Assembly (NCBI GenBank): GCA_003696125.1
Contig: RFHZ01000407.1
Span: 1-5,284 of the forward strand
Reading direction: 5' to 3'
DNA length: 5,284 nt
Origin: Nitrospinota bacterium
Lineage (GTDB): Bacteria; Tectomicrobia; Entotheonellia; J063
The stretch's first letter is position 1; the number at the start of each line of letters is the position of its first letter. Shown here one piece after another: positions 1-5,151 of the stretch. A program made the translations under genes and the position numbers. Under the pieces are notes generated by a model. The model had not been told where the DNA came from. It was given only the letters and a program-made list of their open reading frames with translations, and searched no databases.

Positions 1-320
1 CCAGAGGCCTTTAAACGGTCGATCTGATTTTTAAGGTTTTCCTGTCTTGCAGGTTCATTCATGGATCCACTGGTGTCCTGAATCAAGACTACCCGCCTTC
101 CAATGATCAACTCACCGTGGATTATGGCACTGTAACTGCCAGAAACGATTGCCACCATATTGGGAAGAACCACCCCTATTCCATAAGCGCTTATTCCGCC
201 AATCACAAACCATGCCGCAATCTTTGCCCCTGCATTTGACGGCCGGGTAAGCCTCTGCACCCTTTTCCATTGACTTTGTGTGATGCTCTGGATGCGAAAT
301 ATCAGTTGAGTCACGATCAA
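1..320 (-). CDS. Membrane-anchored von Willebrand factor A (vWA) domain protein, N-terminal part, cut by window edge
   Basis: The reading frame is open from a non-ATG start to the left window edge, giving about 104-106 residues of a longer protein. Numbered from the GTG at 312-314, it has a basic N-terminal segment (K18, R19, R22, R25, K31), one hydrophobic helix at about residues 34-56, and then a beta-strand-like VVLIQ leading into D80-T-S-G-S84-M. That is the DxSxS metal-ion-dependent adhesion site (MIDAS) at the start of a vWA domain, which in this family binds Mg/Mn and mediates protein-protein contact. Charge distribution suggests the N-terminus is inside and the vWA domain outside the cytoplasmic membrane, if there is only one helix. 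Two starts are possible: TTG at 318-320, five bases after GGAG (326-329), or GTG at 312-314, eleven bases after it. TTG fits spacing better. An in-frame TGA at 321-323 rules out a longer N-terminus. The C-terminal domain is unseen, so assignment to BatA-like or another vWA subfamily is open. Confidence 0.8.
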   Translation of the reverse strand, partial: MIVTQLIFRIQSITQSQWKRVQRLTRPSNAGAKIAAWFVIGGISAYGIGVVLPNMVAIVSGSYSAIIHGELIIGRRVVLIQDTSGSMNEPARQENLKNQIDRLKAS

Positions 321-509
321 TCAGTCTCCAGTAACCGGCTATTTGCGCTCATCTCCTGACCACACATCAACGGCGGACGAATTTCACTAATCCAGTCCGT
401 GTGGAGAGAGACATGAGTCACGTCGGGAAACGCGGTACAGTTAGCCGTAGACCGGAGCCACAGAGAAGCACTGGAGAAGGGGTCACATGCAGCGTGATGA
501 GATATCGGG
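321..509. other. Spacer of 189 bases between orphan gene and vWA gene, no gene supported
   Basis: All three minus-strand frames were read. The only open one is a 72-codon frame starting inside the end of the preceding gene. It lacks a properly spaced Shine-Dalgarno and its translation has no recognisable pattern. No strong promoter, hairpin with T-run, or repeat was seen. The gap is long for a tight operon, so the vWA gene could have its own weak promoter or simply be read through. Confidence 0.5.
326..329 (-). promoter_or_regulatory. Probable ribosome binding site of the vWA gene
   Basis: On the minus strand GGAG precedes TTG by five bases and GTG by eleven. This spacing favours TTG (318-320) as the initiation codon. 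The motif is only four bases long, so this is supportive, not decisive. Confidence 0.45.
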
Positions 510-1217
510 TCAACGACGAAAGGTGATATCCACATCCTGAGAGATCTCCGATCTCAGCCGGAGTGGTCCACAGCGACAGTTGATGGTCAGGCTGAATAAC
601 AGGGAGGCCCTGACATCTGTACCCGGAGCGATTCCGAAAAGGATCTGAGCAACCAGTTGTCTCGGGTCGATACCGGTCTTCGGATCTTCCGACAAATCAT
701 AGTCCAGGCGTCGCTGCCGGTCGGAAACCGATCGAATAACGCTCTCCACAGGCGTCTTTCTCTCCTCAACGAACCGGCGGTATTCTATAGAGAACTGGGG
801 GAGGAGGTCTCTGAGGTAAGGTAAATCACCGAGCAACGCCTCTGGCACGCCGAGGCTTGCAGCACCCCTTATCTCTGTCGTGTTCCCTATCTCCTTATAG
901 GCAGAGAAGGCGTCGTTGGGAAGCCAGGAGCCGAGCTGCTTCACCGGTTCCGGAAAGTCCAGTCGCACGCGAGCCCAGGAGACTTTCTGTTGTTCAGGAG
1001 GGACAAAAGCGACGCTGAACTGCATCCCATACCAGTCGAAGCCTCTGCTCACTACGTAGTCTGCATAGACCTCGGTAGGCACCCAGATCTCTGCCTTGCG
1101 GAAGTAATCGAGAATACCCTCGCTATCGAAATCGCCGGAGAGAGGCGTATCTGCAGTTTCCTGCTCTGTGACCAGTTCTGCGATTCTCTTACGGGAGCTC
1201 TTGTTGATTCCTTCCAT
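510..1217 (-). CDS. Uncharacterised 235-residue soluble protein, coupled to the caspase-like peptidase gene
   Basis: I do not recognise the family. The protein has no signal peptide and no membrane helix. The first 25 residues are highly charged and probably flexible. A central part (about 64-120, including WARVRLDFPEPV at 81-92) looks rich in beta strands. A helical, charged part follows (about 125-190; many Arg/Glu/Asp). The end (about 203-234) alternates hydrophobic and polar residues like paired beta strands and holds a C214-R-C216 pair. The start is well supported: GGAGGA-type Shine-Dalgarno at 1224-1229, six bases before the ATG at 1215-1217. That site lies inside the last codons of the upstream peptidase gene, and the peptidase stop is only two bases before this ATG, so translation is probably coupled. 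The arrangement suggests a partner, regulator or substrate of the peptidase, which is inference. It could equally be a sensor subunit; no domain can be named. Confidence 0.85.
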   Translation of the reverse strand: MEGINKSSRKRIAELVTEQETADTPLSGDFDSEGILDYFRKAEIWVPTEVYADYVVSRGFDWYGMQFSVAFVPPEQQKVSWARVRLDFPEPVKQLGSWLPNDAFSAYKEIGNTTEIRGAASLGVPEALLGDLPYLRDLLPQFSIEYRRFVEERKTPVESVIRSVSDRQRRLDYDLSEDPKTGIDPRQLVAQILFGIAPGTDVRASLLFSLTINCRCGPLRLRSEISQDVDITFRR

Positions 1218-1219
1218 GT

Positions 1220-3040
1220 CTATTCCTCCGGTCTTGTCTTCCTGATCCGGGCCATCGGATCACCGAGGATCAGGTAGTTTCGGAAGTTACAGGTACCGAA
1301 CGAATACTGCAGGAAGCTGCGCTCGTAGGCCCCGACCCCTTTACGAGGCCAGCCGACCCCTGTGCCTCCTCGACTCCGGCCGGTCAGGAGCCATTCAATC
1401 TGGTACGAGAGCGTCATGGCCTGATCCATGTAATGAATGGTCATGCGGCGACAACTCTCTCGACCCCATCCGATAGGCAGTCCCTGCACCAGGGCCTTGA
1501 GCATTTCAGCATAATGGAGATAGGGATAGGCCATATTTTCCACATCCGGATTATAGTAATTCGCCTGGTGTGACCGGTTGACGTGACCATAGACGGCTAC
1601 CGGTCCCTGGGGATTGGCAAGGAGCGCCTGGGCCAACCGGCTGATAAAGGGGGTTGGAGGAGAGAGCCTTGCAGGCATCTGCAGATGAACCCACTCTGGC
1701 ATGGTGTCTCGGTCGATGGTTCCTGCTGAGTAACAGGCATGCAGGATAACGATGCCTCCCGGGGACACAGGACCGTCCGCCACATCAGTCGCACACAGGA
1801 GGCCGGTTGTGGAGTCCAGGGGTCGAGGTCCCAGGAAGTCGTCCAGTATGAGTGCTCCCTGAAACTGTCTCATGTCCTCAAAGACGGCTTCGACGGGCTG
1901 TCCTCTCGTCGTCAAGTGCTCAAAGCCGTGTGCGAAGATGAGCAGAGGGCTATGTGGTGGAACTCTTCTGAGCACTTCCAGCACCCGCTCTTTGTACGCC
2001 CGACCGCGAGCCAGAACCTCCCGGGGCCTGGGCAGATCCGGTACCGTAGCGAGCGGTTGGACGAGTTCACGATAGTTCCGTGCATTGACGTCATCGTAGT
2101 CGGTTGCGATGTAAGTAGGTCCCGGCGGATCACTATCATCAAGACCAGCCTCAGCACGGAGGATCTTCTCTGCATATTCGCGGTAAGCATGCGGATGGGA
2201 AAAGGCGAGACGACCTGTGGCCCCAAAGCTCTGGAGGAAGTACTGGAACTCCATGCTGAGGACATCGAAATCGCCCAGCGCTAACAGGTAATAAGGACGC
2301 TCCTCGATGGGCATGCGGGATAACTCCACCAGAAAACGATCTATCACGGCGGGATCATGCCCGTGGGAGAGTTCAAAGACGCGGCCACCGCGATGCTGGA
2401 TCAGCGGTTCCAGGGCGAAAAGCACCTGGTCACGATCAGGGAGGCCCTGCGGATAGACCACCGCCCAGTTCTGAGGAGCGTCCACACGACGTGCCTTCTC
2501 AAGCAAGGCATCAGGAACGATGTTGAAGTGGGCAAGGCGGGCAATCATGGCATCCAGCCTGCCGAACCGCCTGGGTCCCCAGAAGGCTTCCAGGTAGATC
2601 GGGGGATCGAGCGATCTCGTCCGGACTCCCAGGTTACACTTTCGCTCAACCTCCTGGAGCACCGCTTCCAGGTCAGCGCTGGTTATGAAGCCTTCCATTA
2701 CCGGCTCATACGTCTTCTTCTCGTCGTCAAGCCTCAGGAACGATACCGGGATCTCGGCTCCATGCGCGCGATGGAGCGCGTGCCAGAGCTGAGCGATGGC
2801 GCGCAGGTGGCCACCTGTCAGAAACCCCAGATCCACCTGGCCATCACGATCAAAGAACCGGCGGGCAATCAGGCGGGTCTGAGCAACGGAGCGACCGATA
2901 CGTACTTCGAAAGCATCGATCTTTCCTGCATACGGAGGATCAAGCTCCAGCACCAGCGGAATTACTCTCCCCACCACAGGTTCATGAGGCAGGGATTCAT
3001 CATGATGCATACGCACTCTGTGTCCACGATCCCTGGTCAT
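1220..3040 (-). CDS. Caspase-like (clan CD, C25/CHAT-like) cysteine peptidase-related protein
   Basis: This is a 606-residue protein, numbered from the ATG at 3038-3040. A hydrophobic strand leads to His371-Gly372 (LLIFAHGFEHL), and about 65 residues later another leads to Cys436 (GIVILHACYSAGT). A hydrophobic strand ending in His-Gly, followed by a strand ending in Cys, is the catalytic arrangement of clan CD enzymes (caspases, gingipain C25, CHAT). Between them QFQGALILDDF (393-403) resembles the segment seen in bacterial C25-like proteins as I remember them. Upstream, YYLLALGDFDVLSMEFQ (250-266) fits the preceding subdomain of that group; downstream are VAVYGHVNRSH (481-491) and a terminal YLILGDPMARIR (589-600). 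Roughly the first 200 residues are not recognised. No signal peptide or membrane helix is visible, so it is probably cytosolic. Its stop overlaps the ribosome binding site of the next gene. Activity, substrate and activation are unknown. The start is uncertain: the purine-rich GGGGGGAGG lies only one base before this ATG, and a TTG at 3050-3052 would add four residues. Confidence 0.82.
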   Translation of the reverse strand: MTRDRGHRVRMHHDESLPHEPVVGRVIPLVLELDPPYAGKIDAFEVRIGRSVAQTRLIARRFFDRDGQVDLGFLTGGHLRAIAQLWHALHRAHGAEIPVSFLRLDDEKKTYEPVMEGFITSADLEAVLQEVERKCNLGVRTRSLDPPIYLEAFWGPRRFGRLDAMIARLAHFNIVPDALLEKARRVDAPQNWAVVYPQGLPDRDQVLFALEPLIQHRGGRVFELSHGHDPAVIDRFLVELSRMPIEERPYYLLALGDFDVLSMEFQYFLQSFGATGRLAFSHPHAYREYAEKILRAEAGLDDSDPPGPTYIATDYDDVNARNYRELVQPLATVPDLPRPREVLARGRAYKERVLEVLRRVPPHSPLLIFAHGFEHLTTRGQPVEAVFEDMRQFQGALILDDFLGPRPLDSTTGLLCATDVADGPVSPGGIVILHACYSAGTIDRDTMPEWVHLQMPARLSPPTPFISRLAQALLANPQGPVAVYGHVNRSHQANYYNPDVENMAYPYLHYAEMLKALVQGLPIGWGRESCRRMTIHYMDQAMTLSYQIEWLLTGRSRGGTGVGWPRKGVGAYERSFLQYSFGTCNFRNYLILGDPMARIRKTRPEE

Positions 3041-3128: not shown

Positions 3129-3788
3129 CTACAGAGCCAGTACCAGGGCCATTCCTCCCACAATGAGCAGCGCCACCGCCCAGATCAAGTCGAAGTTGAT
3201 CCACTGCTGCCGCAACACGGCCAACCCGAACTTCTTGTACACGCCCCAGGCCACACCACCCATCACCACCAGCATGGCGCTGGTATGGAGTCCCACGGCC
3301 AGCAGCAGCCCGGTTCCTACCCGGAGCTGGGTGTCCGGCGACCCGCACAGGCGGGCCACCCCGACCAGGGCCGGGCCCACCATCAACCCGGCCCCGTGTG
3401 CCGTGGCCATGAGAAAGGACCAGACGAACAGATCCCGCAGCCCCACCTTCATCCCCACCCAGCGGGGATGCCGGTAGTAAGTGCCCATTTTATAGATCCC
3501 AAAGCCGAAGAGCACCAGCGCGATGAGCACCTGGACGGTCCAGGGAGAAACCAGCCGCATCCCGGCCCACACCATCCCCGCCACCACCGCGACCGACACC
3601 GCATGACCCGCAGCAATGGGGAAGAGGGCAACCCATATCGCCCGGCCACTCTTCTGCTGCAGGCCCAGGGAGAGGGCAAACAGCCAGCCCATCCCTGGAT
3701 TGAGGCCATGATAGACCCCAAAGCTGAGCAGGACCAGCCAGGGTCCCAGTCCCTCAGGAGGGATAACAGAAAGTGTCGGTGGAGGCAT
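3129..3788 (-). CDS. Small polytopic membrane protein, possibly a metal or small-solute transporter, partner of the SBP56 gene
   Basis: This 219-residue protein has about six hydrophobic helices (roughly 15-43, 51-71, 84-101, 119-144, 156-181, 200-218). Histidines fall in or next to four of them: H27 in YHGLNPGMGW, H62 in AAGHAVSVA, H131 in MATAHGAGLM, and H168 in VGLHTSAML. His-x-x-Asn-Pro-Gly in the first helix loosely recalls the His/Pro/Gly motifs of NicO/RcnA and HupE/UreJ-type small metal transporters, but I cannot place it firmly; a sulfur-compound or amino-acid carrier is also possible. The start is chosen at ATG 3786-3788 because GGAGG (3795-3799) stands six bases upstream and the hydrophobic part begins soon after. 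The longer open frame reaching 3929 only adds an unlikely sequence overlapping the SBP56 gene. The gene overlaps the end of SBP56 by 35 bases in another frame, implying co-expression and probably a shared process. A copper-supply role is suggested only by the copper dependence reported for bacterial methanethiol oxidase. Confidence 0.8.
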   Translation of the reverse strand: MPPPTLSVIPPEGLGPWLVLLSFGVYHGLNPGMGWLFALSLGLQQKSGRAIWVALFPIAAGHAVSVAVVAGMVWAGMRLVSPWTVQVLIALVLFGFGIYKMGTYYRHPRWVGMKVGLRDLFVWSFLMATAHGAGLMVGPALVGVARLCGSPDTQLRVGTGLLLAVGLHTSAMLVVMGGVAWGVYKKFGLAVLRQQWINFDLIWAVALLIVGGMALVLAL

Positions 3789-5151
3789 CACCCCCCTCCA
3801 GACGTACCTGATGGACACGGGTTTCCCCAAAGTGCACGAAGAACTCCTCATCCAGCTCCATTCCCCCTTCGGCACCGGTATTGATCTTGGCCATCCACCC
3901 TTCGAGCTTGTCCGGGTAGAACTGGTCATCCCAGGTACTGTACAGGGAGTTGGTCACGTAGACGCGCCGGCCATCCCGGCTGATCTCGACCATTTGCGGT
4001 CCCCCCAACAGTGCACCGTTCCACCTGGGGTGTCCCTGCTTTTGCCCAATCCCGCCCAGCGCCACCTTCCCGGTCAGTTGAGGGTGGAAGGGATCCGAGA
4101 CGTCGTACTGGTGCAACTCCCCGAGTCCCCAGCAGGAGACGTACAGGAAACGATCATCCAGGGAGAGATCGATATCGGTGACCAGGGGGGGTACCGCCTT
4201 AAATGCCTGGAGCAGGGGGGGTAGATCCGCTTCCTCTGCCGGGACAGGGGGAATCGTGATCACTTTGCGGACCTGCCACCGCTCATCCGCTTTGTACCAG
4301 GTCCAGATGGAGGCCGACAGGTCTTGGGTACTCACCACCACCCCGACAAAGCCATACGTTTTTCTTGGATCGTGGGCAGGACGGAGTTCCAGCACCATCT
4401 GGTGTTCTGCCCCCAGGTCGATGGTCTGGACATTCCGGCGTCGCCGCAGGTCCCAGAAATGGAGGCGGTGTCCATACTTATTCGCCAGCAGATCTTCCGG
4501 CACGACTCCGGCTTCAAACTGAGCAGGGGTGGCCCATTCGCTGCTGATCAGCACGTCGTCGGCCAGATGCCACCAGAAGTCATAGGCCAGCGTCTGAAAG
4601 CCGCGGTGCAGTTCCCAGGGACCGATGACGTCAAAGTGGAAGTGGTCGAGCAGGAAAATACCTCCCGGTCCTCCGTTGCCGTTGGCCGACCCCAGGGCAC
4701 TGATGTAGATGGCATCCGGACCGCAGTGTACGGTGTGGGGACGGCTATAGCCCGACTTGGCCAGCACCTCCTCCGGCTCGAGCACCTTCGTGATATGCGG
4801 CTGGAGCGGATCGGGCTGGGTGTCGATGATGTAGAGGCGGGAGCTGCGCATCCCCGGCACGATCAGGTAGCGCCGTTCCAGGTGAGGATGTGGAGCGTAG
4901 GGACAGAGGGCCGAACTGCACGCATTCCAGCCAAAATGATGCAGTTCATCCCCGGCAGAGGGTAATTCCAGGGTATGGACCACCTGGCTATAGGTGGAGG
5001 ATTGGGGGTCGAGATCGACCACACAGAGGGCATCAGGACGATCATTGCGGCCGTAGTTAAGCGCGGCCACGTACCCGTGTCGCTCTGGTGGTGCGTGCAT
5101 CGCCATTTTAGGGGATGGATAAAAGGAGGGATCTGGTTTCCATAGGGCCAT
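3754..5151 (-). CDS. SBP56 / selenium-binding protein family, probable methanethiol oxidase
   Basis: This 465-residue protein is full length for the family (human SELENBP1 has 472). Members characterised in bacteria (MtoX) and human oxidise methanethiol to formaldehyde, hydrogen sulfide and hydrogen peroxide, and the bacterial enzyme is copper dependent. Diagnostic segments appear in order: DELHHFGWNACSS (68-80; C78 aligns with the selenium-binding Cys57 region of the human protein), SRLYIIDT, HTVHC (139-143), GNGGPGGIFLLD, TDIDLSLDDRFLYVS, HQYDVSDP, GGPQMVEIS, and NSLYSTWDDQFYPD (401-414). H71, H72, H139 and H142 are candidate metal ligands. There is no signal peptide, so the product looks cytoplasmic, unlike the periplasmic Hyphomicrobium enzyme. 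The start is supported by AAGGAG (5158-5163) six bases before the ATG. The 3' end overlaps the membrane-protein gene. The real substrate could be another thiol or a selenium compound; mtoX is not assigned because activity cannot be read from sequence. Confidence 0.95.
   Translation of the reverse strand: MALWKPDPSFYPSPKMAMHAPPERHGYVAALNYGRNDRPDALCVVDLDPQSSTYSQVVHTLELPSAGDELHHFGWNACSSALCPYAPHPHLERRYLIVPGMRSSRLYIIDTQPDPLQPHITKVLEPEEVLAKSGYSRPHTVHCGPDAIYISALGSANGNGGPGGIFLLDHFHFDVIGPWELHRGFQTLAYDFWWHLADDVLISSEWATPAQFEAGVVPEDLLANKYGHRLHFWDLRRRRNVQTIDLGAEHQMVLELRPAHDPRKTYGFVGVVVSTQDLSASIWTWYKADERWQVRKVITIPPVPAEEADLPPLLQAFKAVPPLVTDIDLSLDDRFLYVSCWGLGELHQYDVSDPFHPQLTGKVALGGIGQKQGHPRWNGALLGGPQMVEISRDGRRVYVTNSLYSTWDDQFYPDKLEGWMAKINTGAEGGMELDEEFFVHFGETRVHQVRLEGGDASTDTFCYPS
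3795..3799 (-). promoter_or_regulatory. Ribosome binding site that fixes the membrane-protein start
   Basis: On the minus strand GGAGG is followed by GGGGTG and then ATG (3786-3788), a six-base spacer. The site lies inside the 3' end of the SBP56 gene. It supports the 219-residue form over the 266-residue open frame beginning at 3929. Confidence 0.7.

What the first reader, a model, noticed from the sequence alone, without database searches (positions are those of the whole stretch)
1..3040. Candidate three-gene system: caspase-like peptidase, orphan protein, vWA protein
Three adjacent same-strand genes combine a clan CD protease-like protein, a translationally coupled uncharacterised partner, and a membrane vWA protein. 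Caspase/CHAT-type proteases and vWA proteins are known components of bacterial conflict and signalling systems (for example CHAT proteases activated by partners, and vWA-MoxR ternary systems). This exact trio is not one I recognise. No nucleotide-binding or MoxR-type ATPase is seen, but one could lie to the left.
Basis: inference. Interest (0 to 1): 0.6.

Follow-up and report, generated by a model that had tools for sequence, protein, structure and literature searches.

The report
Caspase-like protease and orphan partner pair
The window holds a rare, transferable pair of bacterial genes, a gingipain-type (caspase-like) protease and a small orphan protein that travels with it, while the third gene of the proposed trio, a clipped vWA-like gene at the contig end, is not part of the conserved unit.

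Summary
The three minus-strand ORFs are real. The protease starts at the ATG at 3040 (606 aa). The 235-aa gene follows after 2 bp. The vWA call rests on 106 residues (one TM segment plus VVLIQDTSGSM) cut by the contig end.

The protease is family C25-like (gingipain fold). The catalytic-domain model matches gingipain R at Z 25; separase and CHAT come next, about 15. His371 and Cys436 are conserved. Sequence relatives (at most 31% identical) are annotated or score as Peptidase_C25. They sit in Chloroflexota, Acidobacteriota and Cyanobacteria, often beside CHAT, STAND, WD40 or alpha/beta-hydrolase genes.

One close relative was found, in a genome of another phylum. It carries the same two genes in the same order and 2-bp spacing (86% and 76% protein identity). 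DNA homology begins and ends with the two ORFs (82.7% over 2,528 bp), with no shared flank. dN/dS is about 0.12-0.18 for both. There the pair follows a Tc-toxin TcA gene, with no vWA gene.

So the unit is a two-gene cassette, not a trio. Most likely it is a cytosolic C25-type endopeptidase with a dedicated substrate or regulator used in a conflict response. The partner's fold and role are unknown. New variant of a known kind, resting on two loci.

The parts
1220..3040 (-). C25-like (gingipain-fold, clan CD) cysteine endopeptidase, 606 aa. About 185 N-terminal residues of unknown fold, then a catalytic module of about residues 176-604. No signal peptide or TM segment seen.
   Evidence: Fold match to gingipain R, Z 25; tblastn to proteins annotated as C25 peptidases; distant relatives over the Pfam C25 cut-off; close relative 86% identical; hydropathy
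1928..1930 (-). Predicted catalytic His371 codon (FAHGFEH)
   Evidence: Invariant in 30 of 30 aligned family members
1733..1735 (-). Predicted catalytic Cys436 codon (LHACYSAG)
   Evidence: 29 of 30 aligned family members have Cys
510..1217 (-). Orphan partner protein, 235 aa, no TM segment, starts 2 bp after the protease stop
   Evidence: 76% identical partner at the same place in G367; dN/dS about 0.14-0.18; no family hit in four libraries
1..320 (-). Truncated ORF: one hydrophobic segment then VVLIQDTSGSM, possibly the start of a membrane vWA protein. Not part of the conserved unit.
   Evidence: Motif in the sequence; hydropathy; no homologue in 386 genomes or in G367
3129..3929 (-). Flanking gene, not part of the unit: multi-span membrane protein of a separate conserved pair with SBP56 (true start probably nearer 3800)
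   Evidence: Adjacent to an SBP56 homologue in G367, G101 and G003
3754..5151 (-). Flanking gene, not part of the unit: selenium-binding protein SBP56 / methanethiol-oxidase family
   Evidence: Pfam SBP56 E 5.5e-191

Best explanation
The window carries a self-contained, horizontally moving two-gene cassette: a cytosolic C25-type (gingipain/separase/CHAT-fold) cysteine endopeptidase and a dedicated 235-aa partner. Most likely the protease is held inactive, perhaps by its roughly 185-residue N-terminal region or by the partner, until an internal trigger. It then acts on the co-encoded partner, which is its substrate-effector (my first choice, about 40%) or its inhibitor or cofactor (about 45% together), in a conflict or cell-suicide response. 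Shown here: the protease fold, the catalytic pair, the exact two-gene boundary, co-transfer and purifying selection. Inferred: activity, cytosolic site, trigger, the partner's role and the biological purpose.
For: Same two genes with 2-bp spacing in a genome of another phylum, with DNA homology confined to the pair (82.7% over 2,528 bp). dN/dS about 0.12-0.16 (protease) and 0.14-0.18 (partner). Gingipain R fold match Z 25 over 309 residues, rmsd 3.5; separases, Craspase TPR-CHAT and Csx29 at Z 13-16. His and Cys conserved. 36 of 85 loci of the wide family have a CHAT/STAND/WD40-type neighbour, and 17 have a different orphan of about 260 aa directly downstream, so protease-then-small-partner is a repeated layout. 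Known precedent for co-encoded protease and proenzyme cassettes in unrelated defence systems, including caspase-nuclease canu loci (PMC12799240), and for caspase-hydrolase pairs in conflict systems (PMC7159879).
Against: Only two loci of this subfamily are known, so linkage could be one inherited event. The partner has no detectable relation to the downstream orphans of the wide family (hhalign probability 1-2.5%), so the shared layout may be coincidence. No sensor or NTPase is linked in G367, and the window's left side is cut. The partner's structure model is useless (pLDDT 34). No assay data.
Confidence: 0.55

Rival explanations
1. Protease-inhibitor pair, like a toxin-antitoxin module or gingipain and its propeptide supplied in trans: the 235-aa protein blocks the protease until it is lost or displaced.
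For: Tight coupling and co-transfer of just two genes; the partner diverges faster than the enzyme (76% versus 86% identity), as antidotes often do; gingipains are controlled by an N-terminal prodomain (PMC4357240).
Against: The partner has no resemblance to a known inhibitor. The protease already carries its own N-terminal region of about 185 residues.
Confidence: 0.27
2. Accessory of a toxin locus: in G367 the pair helps mature or release the TcA-type protein next to it, and the window copy is a displaced cassette.
For: In G367 the pair lies between a TcA gene and a 177-aa duplicate of the TcA tail, inside a GC-rich stretch (about 62%) joined to a genome of about 45-49% GC. No SpvB-type TcB was found in G367.
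Against: The window's genome has no TcA C-terminal domain. No TcA lies near any of the 80 distant relatives. Only one case, near a contig end.
Confidence: 0.12
3. A true three-gene system with the vWA gene, of the vWA-MoxR-caspase type, whose MoxR and remaining parts lie beyond the contig end.
For: Same strand; vWA-MoxR systems do recruit caspase-like peptidases (PMC7159879).
Against: No vWA relative in G367 or among 386 genomes; a 190-bp gap; the only close relative of the pair lacks it.
Confidence: 0.06

Closest known systems
Peptidase family C25 (gingipains RgpB, Kgp), clan CD
   Same: Whole catalytic module has this fold (Z 25 and 24.6); His then Cys pair; weak Pfam C25 match for the G367 copy, and distant relatives pass the cut-off
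   Different: No signal peptide seen, and the G367 copy scores below the Pfam cut-off (17.9 against 23); intracellular, with a different N-terminal region and a dedicated orphan partner
CHAT proteases (Craspase TPR-CHAT/Csx29) and separase (C50)
   Same: Related clan CD fold (Z 13-16); wide-family relatives often neighbour CHAT genes
   Different: Lower fold score than gingipain; no TPR region; no CRISPR or cohesin context
Caspase-like peptidase modules of NTP-dependent conflict systems (Kaur et al. 2020, PMC7159879)
   Same: Distant relatives sit by STAND, CHAT, WD40 and alpha/beta-hydrolase genes, as described for caspase-hydrolase pairs
   Different: The window pair and its G367 copy have none of these neighbours; no MoxR, VMAP or EAD found
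Protease-effector cassettes: canu caspase-nuclease loci, and nuclease-trypsin pairs of Hachiman and AVAST (PMC12799240)
   Same: Clan CD protease with a co-encoded partner that moves as a cassette between unrelated contexts
   Different: C25 rather than paracaspase; the partner has no recognised nuclease or other catalytic family; only two genes

Membership tests
Peptidase C25 / clan CD | Gingipain-type catalytic fold | tested here: met
   VIA-align Z 25.0, 309 residues, rmsd 3.5 to 1cvr; Foldseek E 9e-07 to 4rbm
Peptidase C25 / clan CD | His-Gly and Ala-Cys catalytic motifs in that order | tested here: met
   His 30 of 30 and Cys 29 of 30 in A3
Peptidase C25 / clan CD | Score over the Pfam PF01364 cut-off (23 bits) | tested here: not met
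   No hit for the window protein; 17.9 bits for the G367 copy; relatives score 29-30 bits. So C25-like, not filed as C25 proper.
Peptidase C25 / clan CD | Proteolytic activity, Arg/Lys specificity | not testable with these tools
   Needs an enzyme assay
vWA-MoxR ternary conflict system | vWA gene conserved with the unit | tested here: not met
   Absent at the G367 locus and no relative in 386 genomes
vWA-MoxR ternary conflict system | MoxR-type ATPase adjacent | tested here: inconclusive
   None in the window or beside the G367 pair, but the window contig ends inside the vWA ORF
CHAT-type activated protease system | CHAT domain in the peptidase | tested here: not met
   No Pfam CHAT hit; fold nearer gingipain
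canu (caspase-nuclease) | Partner is a pro-nuclease | tested here: inconclusive
   The 235-aa protein has no family hit and no usable structure model
Tc toxin complex | TcA/TcB/TcC genes present | tested here: not met
   No TcA C-terminal domain or SpvB in the window's genome; TcA alone in G367

The most novel reading that the evidence does not exclude
A stand-alone two-gene protease-effector cassette of a new sort: a C25-type peptidase that cleaves a hitherto unknown class of 235-aa pro-effector, moving between phyla and landing both in a Tc-toxin locus and at an ordinary chromosomal site.
Probability: 0.2. Interest if true: 0.65.

Novelty: new variant of a known kind. Interest (0 to 1): 0.4.

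Why it matters
If the pair is a protease with its own effector or inhibitor, it adds a C25-type member to the growing set of bacterial caspase-like pairs and gives a minimal two-gene system that can be tested directly in E. coli. The wider C25-like family found here is large: 179 loci in one scan, with recurrent CHAT, STAND and hydrolase neighbours and its own downstream orphans. It seems little described, since no paper in the searched library joined C25 peptidases with these contexts.

Tried and rejected
vWA as third member: rejected for lack of any relative. 235-aa protein as a divergent form of the wide family's downstream orphans (c1, c3, c5) or hydrolase (c2): hhalign probabilities 0.1-2.5%. 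235-aa protein alone elsewhere: weak hits in three genomes at E 0.003-0.025, one with stops inside, taken as chance. Viral and phage origin: no hits in viral contigs or phages, no significant viral fold match. Plasmids: only distant C25 relatives. AlphaFold of the 235-aa protein alone: pLDDT 34, not used. One alignment script timed out. Paper searches on C25 with Tc toxins, CHAT or antiphage defence gave nothing on this family; one search was swamped by unrelated 'chat' papers. Pfam tallies of neighbours show only the first 25 families, so rare vWA or MoxR neighbours of distant relatives are not excluded.

Full report
Observation. The window is a complete 5,284-base contig (C737) of a fragmented genome with 990 contigs and about 8% estimated contamination. 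All five main ORFs are on the minus strand: an SBP56-family gene (Pfam E 5.5e-191), a multi-span membrane protein, the peptidase (ATG at 3040, behind GGGGGGAGG), the 235-aa ORF 2 bp after it, and a truncated ORF at the contig end. The last has one hydrophobic segment and a VVLIQDTSGSM motif typical of vWA domains, but only 106 residues, no family hit, and a gap of about 190 bp. The peptidase and 235-aa genes had no hit in Pfam, NCBIfam, PADLOC or PHROGs.

What the peptidase is. tblastn against plasmids found proteins annotated as C25 family cysteine peptidases in Sinorhizobium, Planktothrix and Nostoc (25-27% identity). One scan of 84,980 species genomes gave 179 relatives, of which the best 80 were kept; none of the 80 is above 31% identity to the window protein, and most are in Chloroflexota, Acidobacteriota and Cyanobacteria; two that were checked pass the Pfam C25 cut-off. 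The alignment keeps the His-Gly and Ala-Cys pair. An AlphaFold model built on 30 family sequences is good over most of the catalytic module (mean 66.7 overall, most blocks 80-97 from about residue 190 to 360). Its best structural matches are gingipains R and K (Z 24.5-25), then separases and Craspase TPR-CHAT (Z 13-16). Viral folds gave nothing. The first 185 or so residues have low confidence and no family match. No signal peptide or TM segment is evident, so an intracellular enzyme is inferred.

The unit. Among 386 genomes spread over the domain, and 240 centred on the hit, only G367 has a close relative of the protease. G367 lies outside the window's phylum as far as the kinship labels tell. 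There the protease (86% identical) is followed after 2 bp by a 76% identical partner. blastn of the whole window against 20 kb around it finds a single long match of 2,528 bp at 82.7%, beginning within the first codons of the protease and ending at the partner's end; flanks are unrelated. dN/dS is 0.07-0.08 over 0.50-0.61 for the protease and 0.13-0.14 over 0.75-0.93 for the partner, so both are kept functional. The partner profile finds no second copy in other genomes. This makes the unit two genes, and mobile.

What is not in the unit. SBP56 and the membrane protein form their own conserved pair, present elsewhere in G367 and in G101, with homologous pairs or members in class relatives. The vWA fragment has no relative in G367 or the 386 genomes.

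The second context. In G367 the pair lies directly after a TcA-type gene split into two reading frames as held (ABC_toxin_N, neuraminidase-like and TcB-binding domains) and before a 177-aa ORF that duplicates the TcA tail (phmmer E about 1e-62; 248 bp at 84%). The stretch has about 62% GC against 43-48% downstream, and no SpvB-type partner gene was found in the genome. I read this as insertion of the pair into, or next to, a horizontally acquired toxin locus. The TcA pieces were searched apart and not joined. With a single case near a contig end, a functional tie to Tc toxin is possible but weak.

The wider family. A census of neighbours in 85 loci shows CHAT/STAND/WD40 proteins in 36 loci, an orphan of about 260 aa directly downstream in 17, and an upstream protein of about 440 aa in 11. 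In the first group 19 of 34 scanned proteins have CHAT and 14 each nSTAND1 and WD40. The 440-aa group is probably alpha/beta hydrolase-like, from its FSHGW motif and the Abhydrolase tallies, although the single members scanned had no hit. Another family of about 110 aa (c3/c5, one superfamily by hhalign, 98%) occurs downstream too and is also fused to some proteases. This agrees with the caspase-hydrolase pairs and STAND networks described by Kaur et al. 2020 (PMC7159879). None of these partners is related to the 235-aa protein by profile comparison.

Mechanism and judgement. A co-encoded, co-transferred protease and partner with no other conserved gene is most simply a protease and its own substrate, inhibitor or cofactor. 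Recent work on canu and nuclease-protease pairs (PMC12799240) gives a direct precedent for a caspase-type protease activating a co-encoded proenzyme, and for such pairs being acquired by unrelated systems. Gingipain control by a prodomain (PMC4357240) gives a precedent for inhibition. The data cannot choose between them. I put substrate-effector slightly first because the protease already has an N-terminal region that could hold it in check, and because the partner is small and fast-evolving. The finding is a genuine but thinly sampled variant of a known kind.

Noticed in passing
L014:9976-13057 (G367:C36): The pair sits between a TcA gene and a 177-aa ORF duplicating the TcA C-terminal tail, at the border of a GC-rich (62%) island in a genome of about 45-49% GC. 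No SpvB-type TcB was found in that genome.
   Followed up: partly
L039, L040, L050, L055, L059, L061, L062, L064, L069, L073, L083, L086, L091 and others: An unannotated orphan family of about 250-290 aa lies directly downstream of distant C25-like proteases in 17 loci, often with a 4-bp overlap, with a conserved hydrophobic C-terminal segment (Kyte-Doolittle about 1.4-2.2). It could be a membrane-acting effector of the protease.
   Followed up: partly
L016:10736-11074, L091:12631-12954, L055:3019-3402 and others: A family of about 110 aa (c3/c5) follows the c1 orphan and is also found as a C-terminal fusion on some C25-like proteases (L015, L016). No Pfam match in the members scanned.
   Followed up: partly
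L011:4425-5780, L013:4231-5547, L044, L066, L069, L072, L076, L078, L084, L092: Proteins of about 440 aa with an FSHGW motif (alpha/beta-hydrolase-like) lie beside C25-like proteases in Cyanobacteria, Nitrospira and Proteobacteria, like the caspase-hydrolase pairs of Kaur et al. 2020, but without a Pfam hit in the members scanned singly.
   Followed up: partly
window 3129-5151; L113, L114, L115: SBP56-family gene plus multi-span membrane protein form a conserved two-gene operon across at least two phyla.
   Followed up: partly
L023, L034, L039, L040, L059, L064, L065, L068, L073, L096: Tandem C25-like protease paralogues side by side are common in Chloroflexota loci (two, once three copies).
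   Followed up: no
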